The position numbers and the translations under genes were made by a program. Source: Flavobacterium salilacus subsp. salilacus (GTDB taxonomy: Bacteria; Bacteroidota; Bacteroidia; Flavobacteriales; Flavobacteriaceae). Taken from it: a DNA stretch of 64,000 bases. The DNA lies in contig NZ_SKBP01000001.1 in NCBI RefSeq assembly GCF_004634195.1, forward strand, positions 434,001-498,000. Direction: 5' to 3'. Below the pieces are notes generated by a model. The model saw only the letters and a list, made by a program, of their open reading frames with translations. It was not told the DNA's origin and searched no databases. Positions 11,996-30,253 of the stretch are shown piece after piece. How positions within the stretch are numbered: the first letter of the stretch is position 1; the number at the start of each line of letters is the position of its first letter.

Positions 11996-12263
11996 TTTCT
12001 GCCTGTATTTTCTTGGTAAGGCTTTTGAAAACCAATTCGTACGAATGGTCTATCAGCTCTTTTAAAAGCGATAGCGGTACATCGCTGTTTACTGATACGG
12101 TATTCCAATGCACTTTACTCATGTGATATCCGGGGGTTATGCCCTCATATTCCACGCGAAGTTCCATAGCTCTCTCCGGGTCGCATTTCAGGTTGATGGA
12201 AGGCTCGTTCTTTTCCCACTGCGAAAGCGAGGAAAGAGCAAACATTTTTCCGCCGACTTTAAA
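11988..12263 (-). pseudogene. yjbR-like gene, 3' fragment split by the mobile element
   Basis: This is the C-terminal ~90 residues of an MmcQ/YjbR-family protein (MFALSSLSQWEKNEP onward, ending SLTKKIQAEIT). The 5' part lies 17.9 kb away at 30184-30253. Joining the two across the shared 14-bp repeat restores one frame: the start MDIQNFYDYCLAKKGV runs to DEDTLV and continues into FKVGGKMFALS, giving a family-typical ~118 residues. The longest frame with its own ATG starts at 12245, but that ATG is internal to the ancestral gene. Confidence 0.9.
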
Positions 12264-13914
12264 TACCAGTGTGTCTTTCTAAATCAGGGGGTGTTGGTTC
12301 ACCTTTGATTTTATTATTGATAGTATTAATATTATCCTTCTTCATTTTATGCTCCAAGCTAAAATCACTATTTTCATCTTCATTCAAACGATAATAAACA
12401 GCACCCTCGCTGCTGTGATGCTGAGCATAAATGTTACTTGGGATATCAATTGTATAATGTATCTCAATATAATACTCCTGCCAATGACTATCATACTCAA
12501 CCATTATCTTCTTAATCATCTTAGTAATAATTGACCTCTTTTCCTCAAAAGATGTTTCCTCAGAAAACTTTTCAAACAAAGAAGTATATTGTTTTACCAA
12601 GTCAGTATTGCTTGTGATGAATGAGAGCATCTTTTCAGATTCATCCAAACTTTTCTTATACTTCTTAATCTTCCTGTCAATAGAAGCTAGCTGAACAGCA
12701 ATATCATCTTCTGTTAATGTACCTTTAATTACAAGTGATATAGCCCTGCTTCTTTCTTTTTGAAGTGTTGCCAGTTCATCTTGCAATGTATCAACTTTGC
12801 ATTCATATTTCTCAACTTCCTTTTGCTTATCCTCAAAAGCAAAGTGTTGTTCAATATTTTGTTTAAGACCATCATTTAAAAATAAATGTTCCCAAATAAA
12901 AGCATCAAGCTTACTAATATTGATTCCTTTATTATCACAGCCTTCTCCCTTATACCGTTTACTACTGCACAAATAACTATTCTCACTTTTTTTCTCATTA
13001 CGCCTCCCATACATCCTACTAACCTTATTGCGTTGTACAGCACAACGATTACAATACAGCACATTTGAAAGCAGGAAACGATGTGATATTTTCTTACCGT
13101 CACTATTTGCATTGAGAGGTAAATGGTCATTAACCTGTTGCCAAACAATAGGGTCAATTATCGCAGGTACAACAAGTTTTTCACCGTTATAAATCCGCTC
13201 TCCTTTATAGAAAGTATTAACTATAAGATTTCTAATGCTGCTGGGTGACCATCTGTATTTATTATTAAGCCCCTTTTCTTTTGCTTTTCGGGAATAAACA
13301 GTTGGAATGTTATTTTCATTGAAGTAATGCGATATACCGTTGCATCCCATGCCATCATTGGATAACTGATAAGCCTTTTTTACATGGTGTGCTTCTTCTT
13401 CATTTATAATAATATACCCCTTATTATCCATCTTATAACCAAAAGGCAATGTACCCTTACCCTTACCCTCCTTGGCTCTCATGGTTAAAGCACTTTTCAC
13501 CTTTATTTTGGTAGTGGTTACATGGTACTTATTTATAACAGAAAGCAAATCACCAAAGAACTCCTGCTGAGGGTCATGCAAATCAACCTGACCATCTAAA
13601 TGCGTAAAGTATTTAATGTTATGCTTTTTAAATAGGTCTAATATCACAAATCTTATTTGCGGATTACGCTCAAAGCGTGATTGGTCATAAGCATACACAT
13701 GGGTAAGTTTACCGATGCTCACATCAGCAATGAAACGTTGAAATTCTGGTCTGTCTTCAATCTTTTCACTTGCACCTGATAATCCCTCATCAATGTAAAG
13801 TTGATAGCTTAAACCCAAAGCTTTTGCTTTTGCCACCCCCTTTTGCTTTTGGTCTTCTATCGATAAATCGTTGCCATCTTTTATTCTGCTTATCCTGCAA
13901 TATATACCAATCAT
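12259..13914 (-). CDS. Large serine recombinase (element integrase)
   Basis: The 551-residue protein has an N-terminal resolvase domain (residues ~1-140: MIGIYCRISRIKDG with the nucleophile Ser at about residue 9, EDRPEFQRFI, YAYDQSRFERN), a recombinase domain (~155-265), a zinc-ribbon region with Cys pairs near residues 303-345, and a coiled coil around 375-450. This fits large serine integrases that act unidirectionally. The gene sits at the left end and its last codons run through the attachment core, the stop lying in host DNA. In the excised circle the frame would instead continue for about 25-30 codons. Its -7 box (TATATTTG) is at 13933-13940. Confidence 0.93.
   Translation of the reverse strand: MIGIYCRISRIKDGNDLSIEDQKQKGVAKAKALGLSYQLYIDEGLSGASEKIEDRPEFQRFIADVSIGKLTHVYAYDQSRFERNPQIRFVILDLFKKHNIKYFTHLDGQVDLHDPQQEFFGDLLSVINKYHVTTTKIKVKSALTMRAKEGKGKGTLPFGYKMDNKGYIIINEEEAHHVKKAYQLSNDGMGCNGISHYFNENNIPTVYSRKAKEKGLNNKYRWSPSSIRNLIVNTFYKGERIYNGEKLVVPAIIDPIVWQQVNDHLPLNANSDGKKISHRFLLSNVLYCNRCAVQRNKVSRMYGRRNEKKSENSYLCSSKRYKGEGCDNKGINISKLDAFIWEHLFLNDGLKQNIEQHFAFEDKQKEVEKYECKVDTLQDELATLQKERSRAISLVIKGTLTEDDIAVQLASIDRKIKKYKKSLDESEKMLSFITSNTDLVKQYTSLFEKFSEETSFEEKRSIITKMIKKIMVEYDSHWQEYYIEIHYTIDIPSNIYAQHHSSEGAVYYRLNEDENSDFSLEHKMKKDNINTINNKIKGEPTPPDLERHTGI
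12264..12277. repeat. Left attachment site (14-bp core)
   Basis: TACCAGTGTGTCTT occurs here and again at 30170-30183 as a perfect direct repeat. The bases immediately outside differ at each end. It lies inside the coding sequence of the yjbR-like gene and inside the 3' end of the recombinase gene. Confidence 0.92.
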
Positions 13915-16779: not shown

Positions 16780-16780
16780 T

Positions 16781-17218: not shown

Positions 17219-17277
17219 ACGTAAGATTATTTTCTACAAATATAGTAATATTTTCTAATATGAGGGAAAAAATATTA

Positions 17278-17532: not shown

Positions 17533-17534
17533 CG

Positions 17535-17587: not shown

Positions 17588-17612
17588 CACTATAACATAT
17601 AAATACTTTACA

Positions 17613-18017: not shown

Positions 18018-18020
18018 AAA

Positions 18021-18506
18021 ATGAATATGAGAAAAATAATACTATCACTTAGCTTGGCTCTAATGAGCCTATACGGTTGCTCAAATGATGATTCAGCAAC
18101 ATTAACAGAAAATAACAACATACCCAGTGAGGAAATAGTTGATACCGTACAACAGCCGATTGATTATAAAATGTGGTTGGATAGTAGCATAAATAGAGAT
18201 GATTTGCTGGTAAGAAAAAAGACGGGTAATGAAAGCTGGATAGAAATAAACAGAAACCAATTAAGCCGTTATACTATTAAAAATAATGATAGCATTTGGA
18301 TAACTGCCAATGTTACGGTACAAGGAAATAATTATGTTCGTGGTTATGTTCATAACAGGGCGCACTATTTACAAGGTGAACTTAATAACTATACATTTTA
18401 TTATTCAGTTGGTAATAATAGGCTAGAATTCAAAAAGAAATTGGAATTTGAGGAAGTTGAAAATCCACCAAAATGGAATGAGGATGGCACACCCATCTTT
18501 GAATAA
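18021..18506 (+). CDS. Putative surface lipoprotein
   Basis: A 161-residue lipoprotein with leader MRKIILSLSLALMSLYGC and the lipid-bearing Cys near residue 20, followed by SNDDSA as an export-like signal. The body (residues ~55-150) appears beta-rich with several Trp and Tyr. No family is recognised. ATG 18021 begins MNMRKII; the second Met (18027) is an equally good start. It is co-transcribed with the preceding lipoprotein and ends before a double-hairpin terminator. Confidence 0.72.
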   Translation: MNMRKIILSLSLALMSLYGCSNDDSATLTENNNIPSEEIVDTVQQPIDYKMWLDSSINRDDLLVRKKTGNESWIEINRNQLSRYTIKNNDSIWITANVTVQGNNYVRGYVHNRAHYLQGELNNYTFYYSVGNNRLEFKKKLEFEEVENPPKWNEDGTPIFE

Positions 18507-18551
18507 AGAAACAGGTTGGATGAAGTGAGTGAATTTTATTCACTCAAAATT

Positions 18552-18580
18552 AAGGATAGCTTTTATGCTATCCTTTTTTT
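18552..18580 (+). terminator. Terminator after lipoprotein operon
   Basis: AAGGATAGC/GCTATCCTT stem followed by T-run. A second hairpin, GAGTGAA/TTCACTC, lies just upstream (18528-18545). Confidence 0.85.
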
Positions 18581-18619
18581 ATTTACATTAGCAGTCATTC
18601 AATTAATAACTAAAAAATT

Positions 18620-18943
18620 ATGAACACAGTAACTACTATTACCTACGATGTATTAATTAAAGATACTCAAGAAGATAAAGAACAAACAATCCTAATCGAA
18701 CTACCTTATCTTGGTAAGTATATTATTGAACTTAAATCTGAAAACTTAGACCGTATAGGAGTTAATTTAATTTTAGGAAGTGGAAATTATACCCAAACAT
18801 TAAAGAGTATAAAAGAAGCCATCCAAAAAGATGGCTACGAAATAATAGAAATACGGGAAAGAGTTGACTCATACCCTTCTAAACATGACCCTGATTGGGT
18901 TAAAAAAATAAAAGAGCAAATCACCCCCCTAGAGAATGATTGA
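18620..18943 (+). CDS. Hypothetical protein paired with HEPN-like gene
   Basis: A 107-residue acidic protein with an N-terminal beta-type part (residues ~1-60) and a helical C-terminus (KSIKEAIQKDGYEIIEIRERV onward). No domain is recognised. Its 3' end overlaps the start of the HEPN-like gene by eight bases, so the two are translationally coupled. That layout resembles toxin-antitoxin or small defence pairs, in which case this would be the partner or antitoxin; this is inference from arrangement only. Confidence 0.6.
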   Translation: MNTVTTITYDVLIKDTQEDKEQTILIELPYLGKYIIELKSENLDRIGVNLILGSGNYTQTLKSIKEAIQKDGYEIIEIRERVDSYPSKHDPDWVKKIKEQITPLEND

Positions 18944-19565
18944 AATAACTCAACAAGATAGTTTATTGATGATAGTAAGAGTACATCAATACTATCGATG
19001 TAAGACTTCTTTTAACAACTTTGCAGAAGCAACAATACAACTTAATAGAAATCATAATACAGAATTACGTATAATTTGTTTTGAACATTATAGCAGTTTT
19101 TTATCTCATCTATATGAATACTATTTAAGCTTTATTGAGCAAAGTGACCAATTCAAAAGAAAAGGTAGGTATGTTGATTACCCAAGTGAAAAACCACATA
19201 TCGTTTCAGATAGGATGTTTAATGAAGAAGTTAACAAGTTGTGTCGGAATCACAAAGCTTCCATTGAAAGAGGTGAAAAGTCTGCTCAGGGATATACAGC
19301 CGAATACTATGATTGTACAGTACCAGTAAATTTTGGTGAACATTTCAGAGCAATAAGAAATAGAACAAATCATACTAGTATAAAGAGAGTTTCCTCAACC
19401 GATATAAGTTTAAGCAAATTCTTTAAAGAGTATCATAAGTTCATACTAATATTATACTATCAAGCAGGTTATTTATGGAATGTTAATGTAGAGACATTCT
19501 GCTGGTTGGAAGTTAAAGATTTTGCTGATGAAGTAAATTCATATATAAATTCAAAAATCACTTAA
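18936..19565 (+). CDS. HEPN-like protein with Rx4H motif
   Basis: A 209-residue, mostly helical cytosolic protein. The segment FRAIRNRTNHTSIKRV (near residue 143) contains Arg-Asn-x3-His, the Rx4-6H pattern that forms the RNase site of HEPN domains, in the expected place after a long helix and before the last helices (FFKEYHKFILILYYQAGYLW). HEPN proteins are frequent toxins and anti-phage effectors. The family match is not certain, since the motif alone is short. It is coupled with the upstream 107-residue gene and lies between the lipoproteins and the resolvase as element cargo. Confidence 0.55.
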   Translation: MIEITQQDSLLMIVRVHQYYRCKTSFNNFAEATIQLNRNHNTELRIICFEHYSSFLSHLYEYYLSFIEQSDQFKRKGRYVDYPSEKPHIVSDRMFNEEVNKLCRNHKASIERGEKSAQGYTAEYYDCTVPVNFGEHFRAIRNRTNHTSIKRVSSTDISLSKFFKEYHKFILILYYQAGYLWNVNVETFCWLEVKDFADEVNSYINSKIT

Positions 19566-19574
19566 ACAATTTTA

Positions 19575-20168
19575 TTACTCTAAGATTTTCTTTACCCTCT
19601 GTACGGTGCTAACTGAGACATCACAAAGCTTTGCAGTTTTCCTGATACTTGTACCACCCCTTAACTCCTTTACAACCGCCTTATGTTTGGATAAGAATTC
19701 ATTATCTGACAATGTTGTACCCTTTGCCCTACCCTTAAACTTACCTTGTGCTTTAGCTATTTTAATGCCCTGCTCTTGAGATTCCCTTATACTATCCCTC
19801 TGCATTTCCGCTACATTTGCAAGTACTGCCGTAATCATTTTAAATGTGGGTGAGGGCTTTCCTCCTACTAAGCTTTCGATACCAAGATTATCAATCTTTA
19901 ATATTACTCCCATCTTATTAAAGTACTCACAGGTCTCAATAATATTGAAACTATCACGTCCCAATCTATCCAGTTGCGAGGTGCTTATATAATCGATTTC
20001 CTTGGCTTCTACTGCATCAATTAATGCTTTGCCTTGCTCGCGTTCATTGAAGGGTACTGCACCGCTTACAACGTCTATAAATACCCTTTCATCGGGGTGT
20101 GCTTTTTCAAGCTGTCTAATGTTGTTTTGAGTTGCTGATGAAACTCTTATATACCTGGCTTTTTTCAT
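19575..20168 (-). CDS. Small serine recombinase (resolvase/invertase type)
   Basis: The 197-residue protein has a resolvase catalytic domain: ARYIRVSSATQNNIRQLE with the nucleophile Ser at about residue 9-10, STSQLDRLGRD near residue 62, and the long E helix (FKMITAVLANVAEMQRDSIRESQEQGI). It ends in a helix-turn-helix (SIRKTAKLCDVSVSTVQRVKK). It is distinct from the large integrase of the element and could resolve dimers or invert a segment. A cluster of inverted TGTATTC repeats at 20688-20842 is a candidate target site. Confidence 0.93.
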   Translation of the reverse strand: MKKARYIRVSSATQNNIRQLEKAHPDERVFIDVVSGAVPFNEREQGKALIDAVEAKEIDYISTSQLDRLGRDSFNIIETCEYFNKMGVILKIDNLGIESLVGGKPSPTFKMITAVLANVAEMQRDSIRESQEQGIKIAKAQGKFKGRAKGTTLSDNEFLSKHKAVVKELRGGTSIRKTAKLCDVSVSTVQRVKKILE

Positions 20169-20250
20169 AGTCTTAAAACGCTTTAAAATGAATATTATAT
20201 TGATATAACCACCAGCACCAAAGCACTAGATTAGAACCGTTTGTTAATAT

Positions 20251-20592
20251 TTAAAATTCGTAATTATCTAATTTCTCTATCTTATCATCAATGGCTTTTA
20301 AAAGCTGGTCAAAGTATAACCCTTTAATCTCATCTTTTATCTTTTCATCTTCAAATAAATACACATCGTAAAGGTCACTAAATGAAAGGCTAATCAATAG
20401 CCAGCCTGTATGCCTATGAGCATTGACTTTTAAAAGCAATCCCATATTCTTATAATTCAATTTCAATTCAACACCCCAACTCCAAAATATGGAAGGGGTT
20501 GGTTGATGAAGTAACATTAGTGTTTCCGCAACATCGAATGTTCGGCAACAAAGCGTATCCAAGTTTGGATAAATTTTTATTACATTTGTCAT
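20251..20592 (-). CDS. Hypothetical protein, element-borne
   Basis: A 113-residue protein beginning MTNVIKIYPNLDTLCCRTF. It contains a Trp- and Leu-rich centre (HTGWLLISLSFSDLYDVYLF) and a charged helical tail, with no membrane helix long enough to be convincing. No family is recognised. A good promoter (TATATTTG with TTG 20 bases upstream, plus 20713-20745) would give a leader of about 110 bases containing two hairpins. Confidence 0.6.
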   Translation of the reverse strand: MTNVIKIYPNLDTLCCRTFDVAETLMLLHQPTPSIFWSWGVELKLNYKNMGLLLKVNAHRHTGWLLISLSFSDLYDVYLFEDEKIKDEIKGLYFDQLLKAIDDKIEKLDNYEF

Positions 20593-20594
20593 AA

Positions 20595-20659
20595 CTAAAT
20601 AGTATTAGAGGTTCGCTTCTAATGCTTTGGAAGGGATGTTGGTAGCATCCCTTTTTTTA
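20595..20659. other. Twin hairpins with T-run in leader of the 20251-20592 gene
   Basis: ATTAGA/TCTAAT (about 20604-20623) and GGGATG/CATCCC (20633-20651) form two adjacent hairpins, with seven T on the plus strand after the second. On the plus strand a TACATTTG box (20581-20588) could drive a terminated RNA of about 65 bases, antisense to the leader. On the minus strand the same hairpins lie in the 5' leader. Confidence 0.4.
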
Positions 20660-20687
20660 TTGGTGGTAATCTCAATATTTCAATGTA

Positions 20688-20842
20688 CTTGTATTCCTTC
20701 TTTTGAACAAGACAAATATACAAAATAGTTTTAATGTATTCAAAATAAAGTATAGTTATTTTTGAATACAATTATAATTTTTTTCTTAACCTATTCATTG
20801 AGCTACAAGTGTATTCTTTAATGGGTGTCTAAAATGAATACA
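20688..20842. other. Cluster of inverted TGTATTC repeats (candidate res site or operator)
   Basis: Three inverted pairs follow one another: CTTGTATTC with GAACAAG (20688-20711), a perfect 11-bp TGTATTCAAAA with TTTTGAATACA (20735-20770), and TGTATTC with GAATACA (20810-20842). Three dimer sites of unequal spacing are typical of resolvase res sites. The middle pair also overlaps the promoter of the 20251-20592 gene, so an operator is equally possible. Confidence 0.5.
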
Positions 20843-21154
20843 TTAATCGGTACTGGTTTAATGTGAGGTTGTAAGATTGGTGGTTATCTTTGGGGTGAAA
20901 TTGGGAGGTCTGTTTTGTTATAGTATTTATCTATAATAAATATTTTTATAATAAATAATATTGATTGTTTTTAGTGGGGATGTTTTTATGCGTGATTCAT
21001 ACTATTTGGACTATTTCGGATATTATTATGAAGATTATTTGGACTATTTCGAATATACTATTTGAAGATTATTTGATAATATTTATTGGATGAAATAAAT
21101 AGTAATAATCTATATAAAAACATTAAACCATCAATATTATTGATGGTTTAATTA
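20843..21154. other. AT-rich gap with short tandem repeats
   Basis: Between the repeat cluster and the next gene there is no convincing protein gene. At 20988-21065 a 25-codon frame (starting MRDSYYLDYFGYYYED, ten Tyr in 25) is made of imperfect repeats of GATTATTTGGACTATTTCG. It may be a repeat tract rather than a gene. Next to the end of the following gene, a weak hairpin CCATCAATA/TATTGATGG (21128-21146) could terminate minus-strand transcripts. Confidence 0.4.
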
Positions 21155-21385
21155 TTAGGTAGTTACCCTGTTCATTTGGTATATTATCCTCTCTATTGTT
21201 TTTTCTGAAAGGTCAAATTCTTCACTCAATATAATATATTTTAGTTGGTTATTATTTACATCATCCAACTCATTATACCTTTCATATATACTTATATCTC
21301 TTATAGCTTGATAAGAGAGTATTCCGTTTTTTACGAATTGGAATATTATATCTTCATTGTTTTTTAGTAGTTGGTATCTATTCAT
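21155..21385 (-). CDS. Hypothetical small protein, HTH-like
   Basis: A 76-residue charged helical protein (MNRYQLLKNNEDIIFQF). The C-terminal part, EFDLSEKTIERIIYQMNR, resembles a helix-turn-helix recognition region, so a transcription regulator of late element genes is possible. It overlaps the upstream 74-residue gene by four bases (ATGA) and is probably in the same operon as the sigma factor. Confidence 0.55.
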   Translation of the reverse strand: MNRYQLLKNNEDIIFQFVKNGILSYQAIRDISIYERYNELDDVNNNQLKYIILSEEFDLSEKTIERIIYQMNRVTT

Positions 21386-21606
21386 TTCGCATTATTTATT
21401 CTTAGAGTAAATTCATCAACAGATAAATGTAAATAACTTATTAATTGGGATAATAAATTTGTTTGCCTTATAATAAACTTATCTTCGCTTACTCTTTGAT
21501 AGTATTCATATTTATATACATTTTCATTCTTGTATAAAATATTATATTTATTATTTGTGAAGTATTTTTCGGTTAATAACACTTCATCTTTAAATTTATA
21601 TTTCAT
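21382..21606 (-). CDS. Hypothetical small protein, element-borne
   Basis: A 74-residue protein (MKYKFKDEVLLTEKYFTNN) rich in Tyr, Asn and Lys, with no recognised family. It is translationally coupled by four bases to the following 76-residue gene and lies 46 bases after the sigma-factor gene on the same strand. Confidence 0.55.
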   Translation of the reverse strand: MKYKFKDEVLLTEKYFTNNKYNILYKNENVYKYEYYQRVSEDKFIIRQTNLLSQLISYLHLSVDEFTLRINNAK

Positions 21607-21652
21607 TGTCTTTTTTCCCTCGGCTTTTGTTATTTTTTGATGAATGCCAGCA

Positions 21653-22378
21653 TTATGGCTTATTAGCCAGCAATTTCTTTATTTTATTGAGAGCTTTATA
21701 TTTCACTTGCCCTACCCTTTGTTTTGTTATCCCCAGCTTTTCAGCCAGTTCGAGCATTGTTAGCTTTTCCTTATCATCCAACTCATAAAAGTGTTCAATA
21801 ATAGCCCTCTCATTCTTATTCAGATGTGGTAAGCATGCCTTTATCTTTTCCAATTGTTCTTCATCATAATTATAATCATCCTCATCGGCAGGATTGAAAT
21901 ATTCTGGAAATCTTTCTGTTGTTGTTTTATTAAAATAGTGTTGTACTTCATCCTCTGTAAATAGTCCCGATTCTACAACATCATCTTCACTTATTTCAGT
22001 CATCATTTCACCTTCCAACTGCTCTATAAGCTTGTGTATTTTGTAATCGCTTTGCATTTTATGAAACGGGCTTCTTATCAAGTTAACATTAGCTAGTATA
22101 AAGTCCATCAGGCTTCTTTTCATGGCGTGTGCTGCATAATATTTGAAAACTGTTCCCCTATCCTCATCATAGCTTTCAATTGCCTTTAGAAGCCCTGTAT
22201 TAGCTGCTGATATAAGGTCATCCAGTTCAATCATTGGATGGTTCTGTAGGCTGTTGTAATACTTCCTAGCATAGTATCCAACAAGTGGCTGATAACTGAT
22301 TACAAGGGTGTTTTTTGCCCTGTGTTTGCCCTGCTTATATTCATTTATAAGCAGGAGGGCTTGCTCGTTGGTAATCAT
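21653..22378 (-). CDS. Sigma-70 family RNA polymerase sigma factor
   Basis: The 241-residue protein has region 2 (residues ~20-95: LVISYQPLVGYYARKYYN, MIELDDLISAANTGLLKAIESYDEDRG, then FKYYAAHAMKRSLMDFI) and region 4 at the C-terminus (LTMLELAEKLGITKQRVGQVKYKALNKIKKLL). A linker rich in acidic residues replaces a clear region 3. It is shaped like the group of alternative sigma factors with an intact core-binding helix, and it probably directs expression of element genes. It directly abuts the upstream HNH gene (stop and start adjacent). Confidence 0.9.
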   Translation of the reverse strand: MITNEQALLLINEYKQGKHRAKNTLVISYQPLVGYYARKYYNSLQNHPMIELDDLISAANTGLLKAIESYDEDRGTVFKYYAAHAMKRSLMDFILANVNLIRSPFHKMQSDYKIHKLIEQLEGEMMTEISEDDVVESGLFTEDEVQHYFNKTTTERFPEYFNPADEDDYNYDEEQLEKIKACLPHLNKNERAIIEHFYELDDKEKLTMLELAEKLGITKQRVGQVKYKALNKIKKLLANKP

Positions 22379-22915
22379 TTAGATATGCGCCCATGTTTTT
22401 CTTCTTATTATGCTGCTGATGCTTGAAGCTGATACTTCAAACATTGCAGCTAATTTCTTTTGAGTACCAACATCATCCTTATGTTCTGCCAGTAAAGCCC
22501 TAATTAATTTGACCTTGGAATTTGATAGCTTTGATTTTGGATGAGCTTCACCCTTGTGTGAACGGTTCTCACTCTTTAAAACCCATCTAAGGTTATCGAT
22601 AGTGTTATTTTTAGGGTCGTTATCGATATGGTCACACTCATATTCTGATGATGGTCTTTTACATTGGAATGTGAATAACACTAGGTGATGTACATATATC
22701 TTTACATCATTTATTATATAGAATAAATACTTTCTTTTACCTCCATTTGAGGATGGCTTAATTATTTTGGTATTACCATTTTTATAGGTATGTCTTAACC
22801 TTCCAAGGCTACTTATCTCATAGTTGTTATTCATCTTTACAGCTAGCCATATTTCATTTTTAAGTTGGTCTTCTGTAATGGCTAATTCTCTTTTTTCATT
22901 GTTTTTTGTTTTCAT
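22379..22915 (-). CDS. NUMOD4/HNH homing-type endonuclease
   Basis: The 178-residue protein has a NUMOD4 DNA-binding motif (NNYEISSLGRLRHTYKNG, residues ~30-48), an HNH nuclease core (VHHLVLFTF, then ECDHIDNDPKNNTIDNLRWV, residues ~88-125), and a C-terminal helix-turn-helix (KKLAAMFEVSASSISSIIRRKTW). This order is typical of free-standing phage homing endonucleases. The neighbouring genes appear uninterrupted, so it may have inserted between genes. It sits immediately before the sigma-factor gene. Confidence 0.9.
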   Translation of the reverse strand: MKTKNNEKRELAITEDQLKNEIWLAVKMNNNYEISSLGRLRHTYKNGNTKIIKPSSNGGKRKYLFYIINDVKIYVHHLVLFTFQCKRPSSEYECDHIDNDPKNNTIDNLRWVLKSENRSHKGEAHPKSKLSNSKVKLIRALLAEHKDDVGTQKKLAAMFEVSASSISSIIRRKTWAHI

Positions 22916-22947
22916 TTTTAATTTTCTTTTAACTACTCTTGTACTTT

Positions 22948-23136
22948 TCAGTACTTATTATTCTTCTTCCCCGCGCTTTCATCTTTTAGTGGCGGGTAAT
23001 GTAATAGGCATTGTAGCCATGCGGGAAACGAGTTCTTTTTATTTAACTCCCTCAATGCTCGTTTCTTTAGTTGGTAACATTGGAAAAGGAAATCTGTTAG
23101 TTCCTCATCCAAATGTTCTTCTTTATTGTCTTTCAT
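22948..23136 (-). CDS. Hypothetical small protein
   Basis: A 62-residue charged protein (MKDNKEEHLDEELTDFLFQC) with a helical N-terminus and a Pro-rich end. It lies just upstream of the HNH gene on the same strand. There is no recognised family, and its reality rests on position and codon pattern. Confidence 0.45.
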   Translation of the reverse strand: MKDNKEEHLDEELTDFLFQCYQLKKRALRELNKKNSFPAWLQCLLHYPPLKDESAGKKNNKY

Positions 23137-23204
23137 ATTGTCCGTTTATTATAAATATCATCAAGTTTTGAAAAAGACCATTTTTATTGAAAAAAAATTG
23201 ATAT

Positions 23205-23236
23205 AAAATGAAAAACCCCAGCAATTGCTGGGGTTC
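23205..23236 (-). terminator. Bidirectional terminator after tape-measure gene
   Basis: AACCCCAGCAA/TTGCTGGGGTT is an 11-bp perfect palindrome followed by five T on the minus strand. Confidence 0.9.
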
Positions 23237-23256
23237 TCATGTGAAAAAAAATAATA

Positions 23257-25926
23257 TTAAAGTGATGCTCCTTCTACTATTCTGCTATTTGAAGCCTGAG
23301 CTGTAGTAATGTCATCTAATACAGTTATCGGTGCTGGCAGGTTGAGATTAGCTTTTCCAACGCTCTCTCCAATTTTTTCTGCTAATAAATCATAATCTAT
23401 ATTCCTATTCATATTATTGATGTTACTTATTGATGCTCCTACCAATCCACCGCCTGCGAAGCCTGGTACGCCAATGCTTCTAAAAAACCTGGCTCCACCT
23501 GCTCGTTGCTGTTGGTCTTTGTTAAGGATAACTTCACCCTGACCAACATACGCCAGCGTGTCGTCACCGTTTGAAAGCGGTATAGAAAGGTTAGCACCGT
23601 TGTTAATTATACCACTAGAAAGCCTTGGGATTTGCCCACCTTCTGCTGCTCGTGGAATAGATATACCAGTTATTTTTTTAACAGCACCAAGTCCACTTGC
23701 AATAACAACACCAGTATTCACACCCTTTGCAATAGTAGCAAATGGTTCGGGTAAAACACTTTCAGCAGCCCAAACTTGTGACACCCCTAGGAACGTATTT
23801 ATCGTTGCTTGGGCAATCGCTGCTGCTTTTCCTGCTGCTGTGTTTTCACCAAGGAGTGTAGCTATATTTCCGAACATATTTGCATAAGCTGATAACTTAG
23901 CATTCAGATAAGCGTTTTCAATTTTCTCCTGATTCTTCTTATGTTTTTCTTCTATTAATGATAGGTCAGCCCCATTTTTTTCTGCTGCTTTTTTCTCAGC
24001 TTCATACCTATCATTTTCTCTTGACATCTGTAACTCAAAATCATTGGCAAACTTTTCCTCATCCAATATTTTTTTATTCTCAAGGTCAATTGCTTCCTGC
24101 TCTTTCTTTGCTTCATCCCTCCTTTTTTGGGCTTCCTCATTGGCTATCCTATTGGCATCATTCAGGGCATTTACAGCATCATTATACTGCTGTTGGTTGA
24201 TAACTCCTTGCTCTTTTTGAAGTAGAGCAAAATCCAATTCCTTCTTTAAAAGAGCATCATTTTCAGCTACCTTATTATTTAGCTTTTCCTGAGTGAAAAA
24301 TGAATCATCTGCTTTCTTTTGTTCAAGCGTTTTTTTATAATTTTCAAGTTCTGTTTCCGCAATGGCAACGGTGGCTTCTGCTTGTTTTTTTAAGTAAGTA
24401 TTTGTTATATTATTTTTATCCGTTTCATATTCGGTGTTGCTCTTTTTCTTTTTTCTATATTCTAGTTCGTTAAGTGCCAACCTTTTTTCCATTATTTGTT
24501 TTTCAAAGGCAAGCTGGTCTTGGATACTTTTTTTCTTAAAATCTTGCTGGCTTATGAAAAGGTCAATTTCCTCTTGATGTTTTTTAATAAGGGCGTCAAC
24601 AGCTTTAGCCTGTTTTTCCAGTGCTTTTTTTGTTTTCTCGGCAGCATTCGGGTCAACATCAGCTACAATATTTCTCTGCTCATTCGTTGTTGATGTATCA
24701 ACATTTGTTGTTTTTGTACTGGCTTCAACCTCAACGCTTTTTGATTTAAGACTGTCAAGTGATTTATTAATGGCTTCGACATTACCACCAAAGAAATCAA
24801 TCAATGGCGCAACATTTTCCAATACCGTTTTTATCCCGTCAATAATAGTATTCTTTATTTTCCCGAATACATCATTAACGATATTTAATAAGCCAACAAA
24901 ACCGACTTTTAAAGCATCAATAGCACCTTGGAAGTCTCCCTCAAATATTTTTTTGAAGAAGTTAACAAATGTGCTGATAGTGTTTGTTATTATCTTAAAC
25001 TGACCTGTGATAAATTGGAACACAACACCTATTGTTGTTTTGAGCTGAACCCAAGCATTTGCCAGCACAACGCCAACAAAATCAATTAGCGGTTCTAAAT
25101 CTTCCTTAACCTCATTTATGTACTCAAGCATTGAAACTAATGCTTCGGTAGAAACGATTTTAATATTTGTCCATATATCTCCAAATTTCTCTACATCAAA
25201 CAGTTCAGCTTGTGCTTTATTAAGTTTTTCTGTTGCTTCAACAAGTTCCAATTGTTTTTTGGCTGTATCATCCAACTGTTTATTACTTGCTTTATTAACA
25301 GCCTCAAAAATTTTCAAAGCCCCTCCAGCATCCTCACCAGCACCTTTAAATAAATCTGCCGTTAATTGCGCTTGTTGCTGCTGAGTAAGTTGGGCTTCTG
25401 TACTTTTTTGAGCTATTGCATTTAGGGCTTCACTCGTTGTTTTTTCTCCCGTTCTTACCTGTTTTAAAATTTCATTCGTGAATGTTGCACCGAAGGCATT
25501 TATAAGTGCATCCCTTGTTGCCTTCCCTTGTTCCTTTAATGCCAAATCAGCTTCTTTGATAGCATCGGGCAACTTATCTGAATATATACCAAGTTCATAC
25601 CCCTGATTAACTATATTCACAAACTCTTGAGCCGAATATCCAGCATTGGCAAATAGCTGGTCATACTCTCCAATGCTGTCAAGGAACTCTTCATTTTGCG
25701 CCCCACCTGCTGCAAGACCCTCGGCTATTATCCTATTGGCTTCACTTATTGAAATTCCATAACTTTTTGATAGGGAATTTGCTTTATTAGCTATATCAGT
25801 GAACTCTTTATCAAATGTATCAGCCGTAGCTGTTATTTCACTTCTAACACCAGAAAGAGCCCTTTCGTTCAAAATAACCCGTTGTATCTTCTGCGGAAGC
25901 GGGATATATGGGTTCATCAAAGGCAA
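23257..25926 (-). CDS. Phage tail tape-measure protein, 5'-truncated
   Basis: The frame encodes up to 889 residues. From about residue 24 the sequence is tape-measure-like (LSGVRSEITATADTFDKEFTDIANKANSLSKSYG in two parts around residue 24-55), with hydrophobic central segments (~280-370), a long Lys/Glu/Gln coiled coil (~440-700) and a Gly-rich C-terminus. The first ~24 codons instead overlap the spanin-like gene in another frame, and the only upstream start is TTG, so the natural N-terminus is missing. No other tail or head genes are nearby. The likely cause is a deletion that removed structural genes. Confidence 0.8.
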   Translation of the reverse strand: MPLMNPYIPLPQKIQRVILNERALSGVRSEITATADTFDKEFTDIANKANSLSKSYGISISEANRIIAEGLAAGGAQNEEFLDSIGEYDQLFANAGYSAQEFVNIVNQGYELGIYSDKLPDAIKEADLALKEQGKATRDALINAFGATFTNEILKQVRTGEKTTSEALNAIAQKSTEAQLTQQQQAQLTADLFKGAGEDAGGALKIFEAVNKASNKQLDDTAKKQLELVEATEKLNKAQAELFDVEKFGDIWTNIKIVSTEALVSMLEYINEVKEDLEPLIDFVGVVLANAWVQLKTTIGVVFQFITGQFKIITNTISTFVNFFKKIFEGDFQGAIDALKVGFVGLLNIVNDVFGKIKNTIIDGIKTVLENVAPLIDFFGGNVEAINKSLDSLKSKSVEVEASTKTTNVDTSTTNEQRNIVADVDPNAAEKTKKALEKQAKAVDALIKKHQEEIDLFISQQDFKKKSIQDQLAFEKQIMEKRLALNELEYRKKKKSNTEYETDKNNITNTYLKKQAEATVAIAETELENYKKTLEQKKADDSFFTQEKLNNKVAENDALLKKELDFALLQKEQGVINQQQYNDAVNALNDANRIANEEAQKRRDEAKKEQEAIDLENKKILDEEKFANDFELQMSRENDRYEAEKKAAEKNGADLSLIEEKHKKNQEKIENAYLNAKLSAYANMFGNIATLLGENTAAGKAAAIAQATINTFLGVSQVWAAESVLPEPFATIAKGVNTGVVIASGLGAVKKITGISIPRAAEGGQIPRLSSGIINNGANLSIPLSNGDDTLAYVGQGEVILNKDQQQRAGGARFFRSIGVPGFAGGGLVGASISNINNMNRNIDYDLLAEKIGESVGKANLNLPAPITVLDDITTAQASNSRIVEGASL

Positions 25927-26248
25927 AACTAACAGGCTCTAATTGTATATTGCTTGTAAAGCGGGTTAGGCTTTTTACGGTTTTAAACTCGGCTGCCAAT
26001 GCAGCCAGTTCGGCATCTTTTTCAATAAGTTCCTTTTGTAGTTGCTGTTCCGTTAGCTGTAAGGTTTTTATGCTTGCCGTTACCGTGCCTAGTTTGTTTT
26101 TATAATGTTTTACACTGTCGGCTAACGCTTCTTCGTTTTGCTTGGCAATGTTTCTATCATAGTTATTCTTTTCGCATTGTAAAAACAGAGCCACGATAAG
26201 GAATATAATAACTCCGTACGGTAAATATTTTTTTATAAAGAAACCCAT
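25844..26248 (-). CDS. Spanin/Rz-like lysis protein
   Basis: The 134-residue protein has one N-terminal membrane helix (YGVIIFLIVALFLQC, residues ~11-26) followed by a coiled coil (residues ~35-95, NEEALADSVKHYKNKLG to ELAALAAEFKTV). This is the topology of inner-membrane spanins and of a common small phage lysis protein in Bacteroidota. It overlaps the endolysin gene by 16 bases. Its last residues run into the tape-measure sequence, so its own 3' end is probably replaced at a deletion junction near 25855-25865. Confidence 0.65.
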   Translation of the reverse strand: MGFFIKKYLPYGVIIFLIVALFLQCEKNNYDRNIAKQNEEALADSVKHYKNKLGTVTASIKTLQLTEQQLQKELIEKDAELAALAAEFKTVKSLTRFTSNIQLEPVSFAFDEPIYPASAEDTTGYFERKGSFWC

Positions 26249-26784
26249 TTGTAAGTTACACCATCTATTACTTCTTCAAAGGTTTCACCCTTGTTATACT
26301 TAGCTTGGAGTGTTCTCCACGTATGACCAAATGTCTTCTCAAAATGTGGTCTATCTTTAAAGCTAGTCCAATCACCTCCCCATGTCCATCCCTTTGACTT
26401 GAAATAGTTGGTTACTTCCATCCAATCGGCAGTACCGTCTTTATCAAAGTCAGCTTTAGTGTCCCATGATGCAGCCTCAAATATTCCATCACCGTTTTTG
26501 TCTAATAGTAGAACAATGTCAAGAGCAAGACCATAGTTGTGTATGGACTGACCACCCTTAGCATTGGTCACCTTACCAAGCCTTTTACCGTTATTATCAA
26601 ATAGTTTGGTTCTACCTTGAGCATAAAGCTCATCTTGTTCTTTGGTAGTTCTAAGAGTATATGCGAATCTCAGCCTTACACCCTTGCCTAATAGTTTATT
26701 ATTGGCATAGGTGTACATATCCAGTACTTCATCCCTTACTTTGGGATGAAGTAATTTGATTCTATCTAAAGTTATATTATCCAT
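26233..26784 (-). CDS. M15-family peptidoglycan endopeptidase (endolysin)
   Basis: The 183-residue protein matches the M15 L-alanyl-D-glutamate endopeptidase family. It has a zinc-binding SIHNYGLALDI segment near residue 82 (His and Asp ligands), WGGDWTSFKDRPHFEK near residues 135-150 with the third ligand His, and an N-terminal LLHPKVRDEVLDMY. There is no signal peptide, so export would need a holin, which I do not see unless the neighbouring membrane protein serves. Together the two genes form a lysis cassette. Confidence 0.9.
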   Translation of the reverse strand: MDNITLDRIKLLHPKVRDEVLDMYTYANNKLLGKGVRLRFAYTLRTTKEQDELYAQGRTKLFDNNGKRLGKVTNAKGGQSIHNYGLALDIVLLLDKNGDGIFEAASWDTKADFDKDGTADWMEVTNYFKSKGWTWGGDWTSFKDRPHFEKTFGHTWRTLQAKYNKGETFEEVIDGVTYKWVSL

Positions 26785-26842
26785 AAATAATATATACCGG
26801 TGACAGATAATAATGTAAAGGGGTATTTTAATTATTTTTATG

Positions 26843-27035
26843 TGCGGAATTTATAAATCTCTGTTAACCTCTGTATTTACTGGTGTTATAGAGTATTATT
26901 TTCATAAAACATACAGATATGACACCGTGAGGTTGATTTACCCAAGGCAAGCCTGTCATATCTGTATGTTTTCATTAATTTATCTCTGTAAAGCCTTGAA
27001 TTTACTATGCTTTACAGATATTTATAAATTCCGCA
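26843..27035. repeat. 193-bp multi-hairpin element
   Basis: An outer 16-bp perfect inverted repeat (TGCGGAATTTATAAAT at 26843-26858 with its complement at 27020-27035) encloses three hairpins. These are an imperfect one at 26859-26893, a perfect 19-bp stem (26906-26924 with 26954-26972, loop of 29), and a perfect 10-bp stem TCTGTAAAGC/GCTTTACAGA (26985-26994 with 27009-27018). The first and third hairpins share CTCTGT and ATTTACT and look like divergent copies. It contains no gene and lies between the endolysin and polymerase genes. A replication origin or folded RNA is possible. Confidence 0.7.
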
Positions 27036-27241
27036 TTGTATAAAATATACAATTAGTTATTACATTAACCAGAAGGTTAGGTTCATTTTGCCCCTATGCT
27101 ACTAAAATATATCAAATTGAAAACTTGCAACTAGCCAAAAAAATGTGTATTTTTACCTTATTACCACCCATCATAAAAAAAGTTGAAAATATTTTTCAAA
27201 AAAAGTTCACTTTTTGAATAATTAGACTATTTATAGATAAC

Positions 27242-27370
27242 AAGGTCAGCATAGACCTTTAAAAAGCCTCGGTTTCCTTTAGGGTAGCTCCCTAAAGGTT
27301 TCTGTACCGAGTAAAAAAAACAGAAATAATTATCTCTATCGTGGGATAAAGGGCAAAAACAGAAATAATT
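27242..27370 (+). promoter_or_regulatory. Structured leader of the polymerase gene
   Basis: Before the polymerase gene are hairpins AAGGTC/GACCTT (27242-27259) and a compound stem with CTCGGT/ACCGAG outside and CCTTTAGGG/CCCTAAAGG inside (27268-27311). Then comes a direct repeat of AAAACAGAAATAATT (about 27317-27331 and 27356-27370), whose second copy reaches the TTG start. The stem ending at 27311 is followed by eight A, not T, so it is not a plus-strand terminator. Confidence 0.5.
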
Positions 27371-28811
27371 GAAAAGCCTTAAAAATGAGAAAAGGTACAT
27401 ACCACAACCTTTAAAAGAATTACTACTAAATAGCCAATACAAGAGAAAAGATGACTTGTATTGCATTATTGACCTTATTTACAGAAAACAAGTTTACTTT
27501 AAAAATGACCTTCAAAAACAATATGGATATTGTGAGATTGCAAGAGCATCATTTTTAAAATTTATTCCCGACCCACATAACGTTAAAGCTGCCATTGATT
27601 ACCTTGTAGAGCAAGGTTATATAATGCGTAATGACTTCTTTGTATATGGTGTGAAAGCGAAAGGTTATAAGGTATCTAAAGAATACCTTGGAACTAAGGT
27701 AGCGGTTGAAATAACAGACCCTAAAATGAATATTAGAATTAAAAAAGAAAAATTATCATTGCGAAAAAAGAGGGTTACGAATCTTGAATTTCAAAAAAGT
27801 AGATATTATAAAACATTCAAGATAAATGAAAATGAAGCCCTACAAGCTGCTAAAGATAAAGCGATGGGTCAAATCAAAACATTGCTTTTAAACATCAAAT
27901 ATAGGCTCTCAGATAGTCAAATAAGTGATGTTATTGATTGTAAAGGGAATCACATTAAAAGTAGAAATATGATTCTTCAATGTGAGGGTGGTAACCAACT
28001 TCATTCTATATTGCACCGCTTGATGATTCACCAACAACAAATATATGCTATTGCTGACGGTTGGTTATACTTCAAAAGGAACAGCACTAACGGACGTTTG
28101 GATAGCAATCTAACATCATTACCATCTTACTTGAGAAAGTTCATTATAAGCGATGAAACGCTTTATAACATTGATATAAAGAACTCTCAACCTTACTTTT
28201 TATACACTAGATTAAGGAATGAGCCAACAGTTGATAAAAACGAGGTTGAACATTACGGTGAACTTGCTGTAAGTGGTCAATTATATGAATATATAGCTGA
28301 TAAATTTAAAGATATAACAGGTAAAACAAAGGATAGAGAGCAGACAAAAAGAATGCTATTTAAAATATTCTACTCAAAAATAACCAGCTTTCAATCCTAT
28401 AAAAATGTTTTCAGAAATATATTCCCTTCAATAATGGAATATATTGATACCACCAATACTGATAAGCATAATACATTAGCCGTAGCTATGCAAACAATGG
28501 AAAGTCACGCTATATTGGATGTTGTTATGCCAGCCTGTAAAGCAGTTGGAATTACACCTCTGACAATTCATGATAGTTTTATAGTAGCAGAAAGTGAAGC
28601 ATCAACGGTAAGGGATATTTTTGAAAATGAATTTAAAAAGATGTTTGGATTAGTTCCAGCATTGCATTATCAAAATATTTTTGAAACAGAAAACGATGAT
28701 TGTGAAGACGATATTGATTTTGAGGATATTTTAAGTGATTTTGATGATAAACACGACAATAACGAGATAATTGAAACTATTTATTTAGATGATAGACAAA
28801 AGAGTGCATAA
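27369..28811 (+). CDS. Family-A-like primase/polymerase of TV-Pol type
   Basis: The 480-residue protein has an N-terminal winged-helix-like region (residues ~25-105) and a minimal palm resembling family A polymerases. Landmarks: STNGRLDSNLTSLP near residue 245; motif A LYNIDIKNSQPYFL with Asp near residue 269; a motif B-like TKRMLFKIFYSK near residues 327-337; motif C TIHDSFIV with His-Asp near residues 401-402. No exonuclease domain is present. This fits TV-Pol proteins of mobile elements and small DNA viruses, proposed to act as primase-polymerases. The start is TTG at 27369; the first in-frame ATG is more than 80 codons later. It follows a multi-hairpin region that may be its origin. Confidence 0.72.
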   Translation: MKSLKNEKRYIPQPLKELLLNSQYKRKDDLYCIIDLIYRKQVYFKNDLQKQYGYCEIARASFLKFIPDPHNVKAAIDYLVEQGYIMRNDFFVYGVKAKGYKVSKEYLGTKVAVEITDPKMNIRIKKEKLSLRKKRVTNLEFQKSRYYKTFKINENEALQAAKDKAMGQIKTLLLNIKYRLSDSQISDVIDCKGNHIKSRNMILQCEGGNQLHSILHRLMIHQQQIYAIADGWLYFKRNSTNGRLDSNLTSLPSYLRKFIISDETLYNIDIKNSQPYFLYTRLRNEPTVDKNEVEHYGELAVSGQLYEYIADKFKDITGKTKDREQTKRMLFKIFYSKITSFQSYKNVFRNIFPSIMEYIDTTNTDKHNTLAVAMQTMESHAILDVVMPACKAVGITPLTIHDSFIVAESEASTVRDIFENEFKKMFGLVPALHYQNIFETENDDCEDDIDFEDILSDFDDKHDNNEIIETIYLDDRQKSA

Positions 28812-29328
28812 GCATTTAAAGAATAGTAAAAAAGCTCACACTCTTTATCTGGTAGCATTACAACACCCAATTACAAAAGAGATATTCTGCAAAGTGGGTA
28901 TCACAGCGTATTCGATTCAAATGAGATTTATTGATTGTGACTATGAAATAAAATACAGTAAGGAATACCCCTTTTCTAATGGCATTGAGGCGAGAGGTTG
29001 GGAAAGCCTTTTACTTGAAAAGATTATACCTTATGATTGGCACTATTATCCAAAGCTTAAAAGCTTTGCAGGAAAAACAGAATGTTATGAGTTAACGAAA
29101 ATAAGGCAAATTGAAAGCCTTATGGATGATGTCCTTATTCCAAAAAAGAGAGGTAGGAAAAGTAAAAAAAATAAAACTTCAATTGTTCTAAAAAGCATAC
29201 CCAGCTATAAAAGTATGGTAATAGATTATGGAATTGCAATTGAGTATATTGATAATAATGATGAGTACGATTGTGTACCTGAATTAACTGAAAAACTCAT
29301 CCTTTGGGGTGATGAATGGGAAATATGA
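28789..29328 (+). CDS. GIY-YIG-like (T5orf172-type) nuclease domain protein
   Basis: The 179-residue protein has an N-terminal HTLYLVALQHPITKEIFCKVGITAYSIQMRF segment, split here as TLYLVALQHP and KVGITAYSIQMRF, matching the LYxx...KVGxTxxxxxR pattern of T5orf172/GIY-YIG nucleases. A Glu in a later helix (GWESLLLEKI, near residue 67) could be the metal ligand. A basic KKRGRKSKKNK tract near residue 118 may bind DNA. It overlaps the polymerase gene by 23 bases and so is in the same operon. Confidence 0.68.
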   Translation: MIDKRVHKHLKNSKKAHTLYLVALQHPITKEIFCKVGITAYSIQMRFIDCDYEIKYSKEYPFSNGIEARGWESLLLEKIIPYDWHYYPKLKSFAGKTECYELTKIRQIESLMDDVLIPKKRGRKSKKNKTSIVLKSIPSYKSMVIDYGIAIEYIDNNDEYDCVPELTEKLILWGDEWEI

Positions 29329-29732
29329 AAGAAAAAATATCTAAAAATAAACTTACTACAGTTCACAAATGGGTGTACAATGAACGGAAAATGACAATTG
29401 AACAATATAAGCACGCGCCCGACTATATTACATTTTTTGGTGGTGTGTATGTTCCTGTTGAAAAAGCTGAATATTCCCTTACCAAAATTAGCCGATTGCA
29501 GAAACAACTGAGACAAATGTTGTATAATTATCTATGTGGAAATGGATTGGATAGTGATAATTATATACTTAAAATAGACGCTCCTGTGAAGCCAACTAAG
29601 GAAAAGGTGTACTTAGAGGTGGGGATGACATTTAAACCCCTTAAAACGGATGATTTGGCTTCATTTGAGGGGCTTTGCGAAATGTTTATGGGTGAAATAG
29701 AAGAAGGGGTGAATCAAATCACCCCTTCTTGA
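29316..29732 (+). CDS. Hypothetical protein in polymerase operon
   Basis: A 138-residue protein (MGNMKEKISKNKLTTVHKW) with mixed helix and strand. The third-codon-region Met at 29325 is an alternative start. It overlaps the GIY-YIG-like gene by 13 bases. Its family is not recognised. Its place in the polymerase operon suggests an accessory role in element replication, by position only. Confidence 0.6.
   Translation: MGNMKEKISKNKLTTVHKWVYNERKMTIEQYKHAPDYITFFGGVYVPVEKAEYSLTKISRLQKQLRQMLYNYLCGNGLDSDNYILKIDAPVKPTKEKVYLEVGMTFKPLKTDDLASFEGLCEMFMGEIEEGVNQITPS
29702..29731. terminator. Hairpin at end of polymerase operon
   Basis: AAGGGGTGA/TCACCCCTT overlaps the stop codon region and lies between convergent genes. 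The T-run is weak, so termination is only probable. Confidence 0.5.
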
Positions 29733-29736
29733 TACT

Positions 29737-30018
29737 TCATAGTTCAGTATATGGAAAATATAATGCTCCTTTTAGCCTTATCGAAATATGTTGCCAGTAC
29801 TTAGATTCAAAAGTCCACCCATTACTCCTTAAATATAGTGCTATTGAATGTAAAGAAGTTACTTTTTCAAATCCATCAGCGGGTTCTTCTAAAAATTGAA
29901 TATATGGTTTATGTTTTTTATTTACAAGAACATAAAGAGGATGTTCCCTGAGATTCCAATAATCTTCAAATTCGATTCCTCCGAAAAGTTTTATATCGTA
30001 ACTCTTTTTCTCCATCAT
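29737..30018 (-). CDS. Hypothetical protein near right end of element
   Basis: A 93-residue protein (MMEKKSYDIKLFGGIEFED) with Trp/Tyr-rich amphipathic segments and no recognised family. It is convergent with the polymerase operon and is the last gene before the right attachment site. The 150 bases between it and the site encode, on the minus strand, the tail that the recombinase would gain after excision. Confidence 0.55.
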   Translation of the reverse strand: MMEKKSYDIKLFGGIEFEDYWNLREHPLYVLVNKKHKPYIQFLEEPADGFEKVTSLHSIALYLRSNGWTFESKYWQHISIRLKGALYFPYTEL

Positions 30019-30148
30019 AAAGTGTCTGTCATGTTATAATATTTAGAAATAAATGTATAAAAAATAACTACTAATAAGCTTAATTAGGTTCTAGCCACCT
30101 TTGGTTCTTTCTTTGGTAATCTCAGTTTCATTTTGAGGTCGAGATTCA

Positions 30149-30253
30149 TTACCCCCGAATTGTAAAAGTTACCAGTGTGTCTTCATCAAAAGGAAAATGT
30201 TCGGTAACGCCTTTTTTGGCAAGGCAGTAATCATAAAAGTTTTGTATATCCAT
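30149..30253 (-). pseudogene. yjbR-like gene, 5' fragment
   Basis: The frame starts at ATG 30253 with MDIQNFYDYCLAKKGV and reaches DEDTLV at the 14-bp repeat, then reads a few element codons to a stop at 30149. Combined with 11988-12263 it reconstitutes a complete YjbR-family protein. As integrated, the host gene is disrupted. Confidence 0.88.
30170..30183. repeat. Right attachment site (14-bp core)
   Basis: Perfect copy of TACCAGTGTGTCTT at 12264-12277. Host DNA on the right encodes the start of the yjbR-like gene. Confidence 0.92.

What the first reader, a model, noticed from the sequence alone, without database searches (positions are those of the whole stretch)
26843..27035. Nested 193-bp multi-hairpin structure beside the element polymerase
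A 16-bp perfect outer inverted repeat closes around three internal hairpins, one with a perfect 19-bp stem. This four-stem cloverleaf-like layout in non-coding DNA recalls foldback replication origins, single-strand recombination sites or highly structured RNAs. It sits between the lysis genes and a TV-Pol-type polymerase, so it could be the origin that the polymerase recognises.
Basis: partly seen in the sequence, partly recalled or inferred. Interest (0 to 1): 0.72.

Follow-up and report, generated by a model that had tools for sequence, protein, structure and literature searches.

The report
Conserved foldback DNA beside phage polymerase
A 193-base stretch of non-coding DNA in a prophage-like element, likely of a Flavobacterium, can fold back into nested hairpins, and nine of ten related elements compared carry a matching hairpin at the same spot next to the same kind of polymerase gene; it is likely the site where that polymerase starts copying the element's DNA, which would show how this little-studied polymerase family begins its work.

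Summary
26843-27035 holds a perfect 16-bp outer inverted repeat around a perfect 19-bp central hairpin, a 10-bp right hairpin and a weak left one (fold z about -9.7). It lies in a 17.9-kb integrated element, upstream of a family-A, TV-Pol-type polymerase gene. Of 11 clade loci examined, 10 have a perfect 13-22 bp central hairpin 5' of the polymerase; 5 also have a perfect 14-18 bp outer repeat around 149-165 nt. A nested-repeat detector found 7 cases in 951 kb, all at this place; 22 distant polymerase genes lack the hairpin. Pairing shows no RNA-strand bias and the likely polymerase promoter is downstream, so I read it as a DNA element: likely a foldback priming site/origin used by the polymerase, working like the pRN1 stem-loop. 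Function is untested; one clade member lacks it and the outer stem is clear in under half. Not in the finding: a leader pseudoknot (27268-27365) whose pairing covaries in 12 of 12 loci tested.

The parts
26843..27035 (.). foldback element (nested inverted repeats)
26843..26858 (.). outer stem, 5' arm (P1)
27020..27035 (.). outer stem, 3' arm (P1')
26859..26893 (.). left hairpin (P2), weak; carries loop motif copy CCTCTGTATTTACTGGTGTTAT (26868-26889)
26906..26972 (.). central hairpin (P3), 19-bp perfect stem, 29-nt loop; counterpart in 10 of 11 clade loci (window included)
26985..27018 (.). right hairpin (P4), 10-bp stem; carries loop motif copy GCCTTGAATTTACTATGCTTTA (26993-27014)
27125..27153 (+). 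possible sigma-70-type promoter of the polymerase, TTGCAA-N17-TATTTT (predicted, by analogy with L068)
   Evidence: seen by eye; coordinates; the automatic search did not choose it and its best window site is at chance level
27268..27311 (+). leader hairpin 5' of the polymerase start: outer stem CTCGGT/ACCGAG, inner stem 27276-27284/27290-27298
27299..27305 (+). leader bulge TTTCTGT, complementary to two downstream repeats (predicted pseudoknot)
27320..27326 (+). repeat R1 ACAGAAA
27359..27365 (+). repeat R2 ACAGAAA, ending 3 nt before the TTG start codon
27369..28811 (+). TV-Pol-type family-A DNA polymerase (480 aa)
26233..26784 (-). endolysin (M15 peptidase family), diverging from the polymerase
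12264..12276 (.). left att core TACCAGTGTGTCT
30170..30182 (.). right att core TACCAGTGTGTCT; the element (about 12264-30182) splits a conserved host gene
12259..13914 (-). large serine integrase of the element

Best explanation
The 193-bp stretch is a foldback DNA element whose central hairpin is conserved 5' of TV-Pol-type polymerase genes in phage and prophage-like elements of Bacteroidota, and it likely works as a single-strand priming site or origin that the adjacent polymerase uses to start replication. Shown here: perfect nested stems; a perfect central hairpin at the same place in 10 of 11 clade loci, with changed but still paired arms; no such nested layout elsewhere in the DNA scanned; no RNA-strand bias of wobble pairs. 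Inferred: when the region becomes single-stranded (excised, supercoiled or partly unwound DNA) the hairpins fold, the polymerase or a partner reads the side-hairpin loops and primes there, and host replication proteins extend. Also inferred: the leader pseudoknot between the element and the polymerase start tunes polymerase translation and so the initiation rate.
For: (1) Structure kept while sequence changes: central stems 13-22 bp, perfect, in 10 of 11 clade loci; outer stems 14-18 bp, perfect, in 5 of 11 (window, L068, L077, L079, L090) with 149-165 nt inside and partly unrelated arms (0 of 300 shuffles reach the nested score in each of the 10 loci). (2) Place: always 5' of the polymerase (outer 3' arm, where 9 bp or more and not AT-only, about 170-335 nt before it), although the left neighbour differs: endolysin (window), lysozyme-like (L083), cytosine methylase (L077), sigma factor (L082), proteins without a family match (L078, L079, L081). 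(3) Specificity: 7 distinct hits in 951 kb, all at this place. The hairpin pattern of sub-group L077-L081 hits 1 of 338 genus genomes, at the polymerase locus, and no viral contig; the pattern of the other sub-group hits one viral contig, that of L068. (4) Strand-neutral: G-U pairs 44 of 603 (+) and 41 of 605 (-) in folds of 10 loci; central loops vary 14-35 nt, which suits a hairpin better than two phased protein sites. (5) The polymerase model matches family A and keeps RxxxK and two aspartates. A TV-Pol, CCPol with MP, is a template-dependent primase whose preferred start maps to its putative origin (passages of PMC7581432 and PMC10061031). (6) Precedent: pRN1 needs a 100-nt stem-loop, low in sequence but high in structure conservation, beside its prim-pol gene (passages of PMC4234260). 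(7) Of 20 distinct element proteins scanned against PHROGs (10 of them also Pfam), none matches another primase, Rep or replicative helicase.
Against: No replication data. One clade member (L069, 42% identity) has neither stem. The outer stem is clear in only 5 of 11 loci: L080 has 9 bp, L082 an AT-only 9 bp, L081 8, L078 7, L083 and L069 6. GC-skew minima follow gene orientation and lie near the foldback in only 2 of 10 loci. No D5 helicase, the usual partner of TV-Pols, was found. No DnaA-box-like site in 26501-27500 by my pattern. No plasmid relying on this polymerase was found (one distant match). Sequence kept within sub-groups (GGAYACTATAAG; ACATAARGA) also fits a protein operator. The wobble test has low power. 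The promoter beats shuffles clearly in only 4 of 10 loci and not in the window.
Confidence: 0.5

Rival explanations
1. A regulatory DNA element: the inverted arms are paired operator sites for a phage repressor or for the polymerase itself, setting the promoters of the polymerase and of the gene on the other side.
For: By ORF calls it lies between divergent genes in the window and five more loci (L068, L079, L080, L082, L083); arm sequences recur within sub-groups; the polymerase promoter likely lies just downstream; a gene with a phage-repressor match is at 17278-17532.
Against: In L077, L078 and L081 the gene on the left runs the same way as the polymerase, yet the central hairpin is there; arms differ between sub-groups but stay perfectly paired; loop lengths of 14-35 nt are not helically phased; an operator does not need three nested stems.
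Confidence: 0.22
2. A structured non-coding RNA made from the region (retron-like or antisense to the leader), working with the polymerase.
For: Nested repeats around hairpins next to a polymerase gene recall retron msr-msd loci (recalled, not tested); strong RNA fold on both strands.
Against: No Rfam match at gathering score, only four sub-threshold ones; wobble pairs show no strand bias (low power); the polymerase model matches family A, not reverse transcriptases, in the 50 matches shown; likely promoter downstream of the element.
Confidence: 0.12
3. A site for another DNA transaction of the phage (packaging start, resolution or strand transfer) that is merely linked to the polymerase gene.
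For: Perfect palindromic arms are common at such sites (general knowledge); small resolvases are coded in the window element (19575-20168) and in L079.
Against: It goes with the polymerase across different neighbourhoods; no head or terminase gene was detected in the window element among 20 proteins scanned, yet the foldback is kept; integration uses distant att cores.
Confidence: 0.1
4. A decayed mobile repeat (MITE-like insertion) or chance palindrome.
For: Terminal inverted repeats with internal hairpins.
Against: Single copy in its genome; same place in 10 of 11 loci and 0 of 300 shuffles; no other such layout in 951 kb.
Confidence: 0.03

Closest known systems
pRN1-type stem-loop origin (crenarchaeal plasmids; proposed for phage BIP-1), PMC4234260
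   Same: About 100-nt foldback beside a prim-pol gene; low sequence but high structure conservation; stem integrity needed for replication there (abstract and passages seen).
   Different: pRN1 has one stem-loop downstream of a gene for an AEP primase with SF3 helicase; here nested stems with side hairpins lie upstream of a family-A TV-Pol-type gene and no helicase was found.
RSF1010 ssiA/ssiB single-strand initiation sites, PMC4434180
   Same: Dedicated hairpin read as single strand by an element-coded primase (passages seen).
   Different: 40-nt sites, one per strand, with separate iterons and a RepA helicase; AEP-type primase RepB'.
SCCmec CCPol-MP and its putative origin (a TV-Pol), PMC7581432
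   Same: TV-Pol with primase activity and a preferred start at a putative origin holding direct repeats and inverted repeats (passages seen).
   Different: That origin is downstream of a Cch2 helicase operon and the helicase reads its direct repeats; no large conserved foldback in the 12 passages I saw.
repZ leader pseudoknot of IncI-alpha plasmids (as told in PMC8383071)
   Same: Pseudoknot in the leader of a replication gene controlling translation (passage seen).
   Different: Here the bulge can pair with a repeat ending 3-17 nt before the start codon and often with a second one; no antisense RNA known.

Membership tests
TV-Pol family (Iyer 2008, PMC2579912) | family-A polymerase catalytic core | tested here: met
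   AlphaFold model (mean pLDDT 80.5); the 50 PDB matches shown are family-A DNA polymerases (Pol I, Taq, theta, nu, T7), best E 9e-7, though TM-scores are only 0.29-0.40
TV-Pol family (Iyer 2008, PMC2579912) | two palm aspartates and a fingers RxxxK motif | tested here: met
   D269, D402, R323 and K327 invariant in 27 of 27 aligned sequences; the assignment to motifs is mine
TV-Pol family (Iyer 2008, PMC2579912) | linked D5-like helicase or N-terminal helical domain | tested here: inconclusive
   no helicase among the element proteins scanned; the N-terminal part is mostly helical in the model but was not compared with the paper's domain
pRN1-type stem-loop origin | conserved foldback beside the prim-pol gene despite sequence change | tested here: met
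   10 of 11 clade loci for the central hairpin, 5 of 11 for the outer stem
pRN1-type stem-loop origin | AEP primase with SF3 helicase | tested here: not met
   polymerase is family A, no helicase match; so it may work like, but is not a member
pRN1-type stem-loop origin | stem-loop needed for replication | not testable with these tools
   needs genetics
Retron | reverse transcriptase gene next to msr-msd | tested here: not met
   family-A matches, no reverse transcriptase among the 50 of 677 matches shown
Rolling-circle (HUH) origin | HUH Rep gene in the element | tested here: inconclusive
   none among 20 element proteins scanned against PHROGs, 10 of them also Pfam; several short ORFs were not scanned
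Described RNA family | Rfam match at gathering score | tested here: not met
   none here at gathering score; sub-threshold only

The most novel reading that the evidence does not exclude
This is a new class of replication start site: a foldback origin in which pairing more than sequence is what selection keeps, dedicated to phage TV-Pol primase-polymerases, and coupled to a covarying leader pseudoknot with two possible partners that meters the polymerase; together they would form a compact replicon control region for a polymerase family whose phage members have no described cis-site in the papers I could search.
Probability: 0.4. Interest if true: 0.78.

Novelty: new variant of a known kind. 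Interest (0 to 1): 0.62.

Why it matters
TV-Pols occur in many mobile elements and viruses but, by a statement in PMC7581432 (passage), none besides CCPol was known to be biochemically characterised in 2020. A defined 193-bp candidate template with natural variants in nine relatives makes the open question of how phage TV-Pols begin synthesis directly testable in vitro. The leader pseudoknot gives a second, independent handle on control of the polymerase.

Tried and rejected
Phage and plasmid records gave no DNA match to the region; by protein the polymerase finds six uncultured phage records of 595-735 kb at 27-31% identity and one plasmid at 23%. The 16-bp arm as a pattern hits 39 viral contigs, used only as background. 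Single-sequence locus searches found no relatives; alignments did. A crude 200-nt fold scan gave best z of -8 to -11 in L077, L081, L082, L083 but only about -4 to -6 in the window, L068, L078-L080 and also in L069, L070, L072, L076, so it does not separate the groups; I rely. GC skew as origin evidence: rejected, it follows gene strand. DnaA boxes: none by my pattern. A motif model for the side-hairpin loops was trained on the sequences it scored, so its scores are biased; two copies lie 125-129 bp apart in 5 of 10 loci (window, L068, L080, L082, L083; second copy reversed in L082), not in the other 5. Promoter search: 3 of 300 shuffles or fewer in L077, L079, L080, L090; 27-60 of 300 in L068, L078, L081, L082, L083; 198 of 300 in the window. 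Pairwise stem changes in one sub-group of four: 13 two-sided, 5 one-sided (arm ends set by hand).

Upstream DNA was 423-600 bases. Window distances to the start were counted from 27387, not the real start 27369, so they are 18 nt too large.

Claims that nothing is in print rest only.

Full report
What is there. The repeats described are in the sequence at the stated coordinates. The fold is far stronger than shuffles on either strand, and the nested-repeat score of 35 was not reached in 300 dinucleotide shuffles of the region (maximum 21). The left internal hairpin is weak. The plus-strand minimum-energy fold pairs left and right segments with each other; the minus-strand fold is the cloverleaf.

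Where it is. The window's genome is of the same genus as G971 and G982, whose contigs have the lengths of those of L077 (Flavobacterium zhairuonense) and L082 (Flavobacterium sp.), so it is inferred to be Flavobacterium. An element of about 17.9 kb (12264-30182) with a large serine integrase splits a conserved host gene that is whole in 4 of the 5 relatives I looked at (the fifth was not resolved); both junctions carry TACCAGTGTGTCT. Inside are a UmuD-like gene beside a phage polymerase-family gene (UmuC-like, my reading), a repressor, a resolvase, a sigma factor, a tape-measure protein, an endolysin and the polymerase. No head, portal or terminase gene was found among the 20 element proteins scanned against PHROGs, whereas relatives L068 and L083 have head maturation proteases.

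The polymerase. It has no Pfam or PHROG match. An AlphaFold model from a 27-row alignment matches family-A DNA polymerases, E down to 9e-7, with low TM-scores of 0.29-0.40 in the 50 rows shown. Invariant D269, D402 and R323-x3-K327 fit the TV-Pol description that I saw (one section and passages of PMC2579912). The protein search gave 166 relatives, 120 listed, most of whose contigs could not be reached here.

Comparative test. I compared 11 loci of the polymerase clade (window, L068, L069, L077-L083, L090; omissions are told under Tried and rejected). A perfect central hairpin of 13-22 bp, loop 14-35 nt, is present in 10 of 11; L069 lacks it. A perfect outer repeat of 14-18 bp with 149-165 nt inside is present in 5 of 11 (window, L068, L077, L079, L090). 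L080 has 9 bp, L082 an AT-only 9 bp, L081 8, L078 7, L083 and L069 6. Outer arms share TGCG[AG]AA in window, L068 and L090 but are unrelated in L077 and L079. In all 10 loci with the hairpin 0 of 300 shuffles reach the nested score; L069 is at chance (168 of 300), as are or nearly are the distant L070, L072 and L076 (12, 13, 201 of 300). Upstream of 22 distant polymerase genes and L069 no perfect hairpin exceeds 11 bp. A detector for the nested layout over all 105 loci then held (951 kb, partly redundant) gave 7 distinct hits (window, L068, L077, L079, L080, L082, G352), all 5' of clade polymerases. A pattern for the hairpin of sub-group L077-L081 hit 1 of 338 genus genomes, at the polymerase locus of G971, and no viral contig.

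DNA or RNA. In folds of the 10 loci, G-U pairs are 44 of 603 on the plus and 41 of 605 on the minus strand; an RNA read from one strand would be expected to show bias, although power is low. Rfam gives nothing at its own threshold. A sigma-70-like promoter can be seen by eye between foldback and polymerase in all 10, but beats shuffles clearly only in 4 of 10 and not in the window. I therefore favour, without proof, a DNA element outside the polymerase transcript.

The leader pseudoknot. Just 5' of the polymerase start, a hairpin leaves a bulge that is exactly complementary (7-9 bp) to a repeat ending 3-17 nt before the start codon, in 12 of 12 loci tested (the 11 clade loci and L076; loci and hairpin arms picked by eye). 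All 12 bulge stretches differ; swapping partners between loci gives 7 bp or more in 5 of 132 pairs, and 0 of 20000 permutations reach the observed mean of 7.5. A second site of 5-8 bp lies further upstream in 10 of the 12 (not in L068 and L078; the 5-bp ones may be chance), so the bulge may choose between two partners (inferred). An automatic version of the test on 22 distant loci finds it in L076 and an AT-rich match in L073 only. A translation switch as in repZ (passage of PMC8383071) is the likely role.

Mechanism. The working model is a foldback single-strand start site: hairpins form when the region is unwound, the polymerase or a partner reads the side loops (a repeated motif there is suggestive and biased by training), primes, and host proteins extend. 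Precedents seen as passages: pRN1 stem-loop origin (PMC4234260), RSF1010 ssiA (PMC4434180), primase activity of a TV-Pol, CCPol with MP (PMC7581432, PMC10061031). Against it: no replication data, one clade member without stems, outer stem clear in under half the loci, no helicase found, no skew or plasmid support. I put the origin reading at 0.5 and the statement that this is a conserved cis element of this polymerase clade much higher.

Novelty. A search for TV-Pol papers (5 found) and searches for the polymerase family and for Flavobacterium phage stem-loop, cruciform or hairpin origins listed no paper whose title or abstract describes this element; of the TV-Pol papers I saw passages of four and none describes it there. 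Subscription papers are outside the library.

Noticed in passing
window 27268-27365: Covarying pseudoknot in the polymerase leader with one or two partner repeats before the start codon; possible translation switch, a finding in its own right.
   Followed up: yes
window 12264-12276 and 30170-30182: Element inserted in a conserved host gene (YjbR/MmcQ-like by recalled resemblance); 13-bp shared core; the integrase reading frame runs through the left core and ends on the host side.
   Followed up: partly
window 12264-30182: Element has tape-measure, lysis, sigma and integrase genes but no head, portal or terminase gene among 20 proteins scanned: a decayed prophage or a satellite.
   Followed up: partly
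L025 (own genome, contig C12): A second, distant family-A polymerase relative in the same genome, with terminator-like hairpins directly upstream and no foldback.
   Followed up: partly
L082 right side hairpin: Loop motif of the right side hairpin is in reversed orientation compared with L083, as if the hairpin had been flipped.
   Followed up: no
L077, L078, L080, L081 polymerase starts: An out-of-frame ATG lies exactly 7 nt upstream of the polymerase start codon in these four loci.
   Followed up: no
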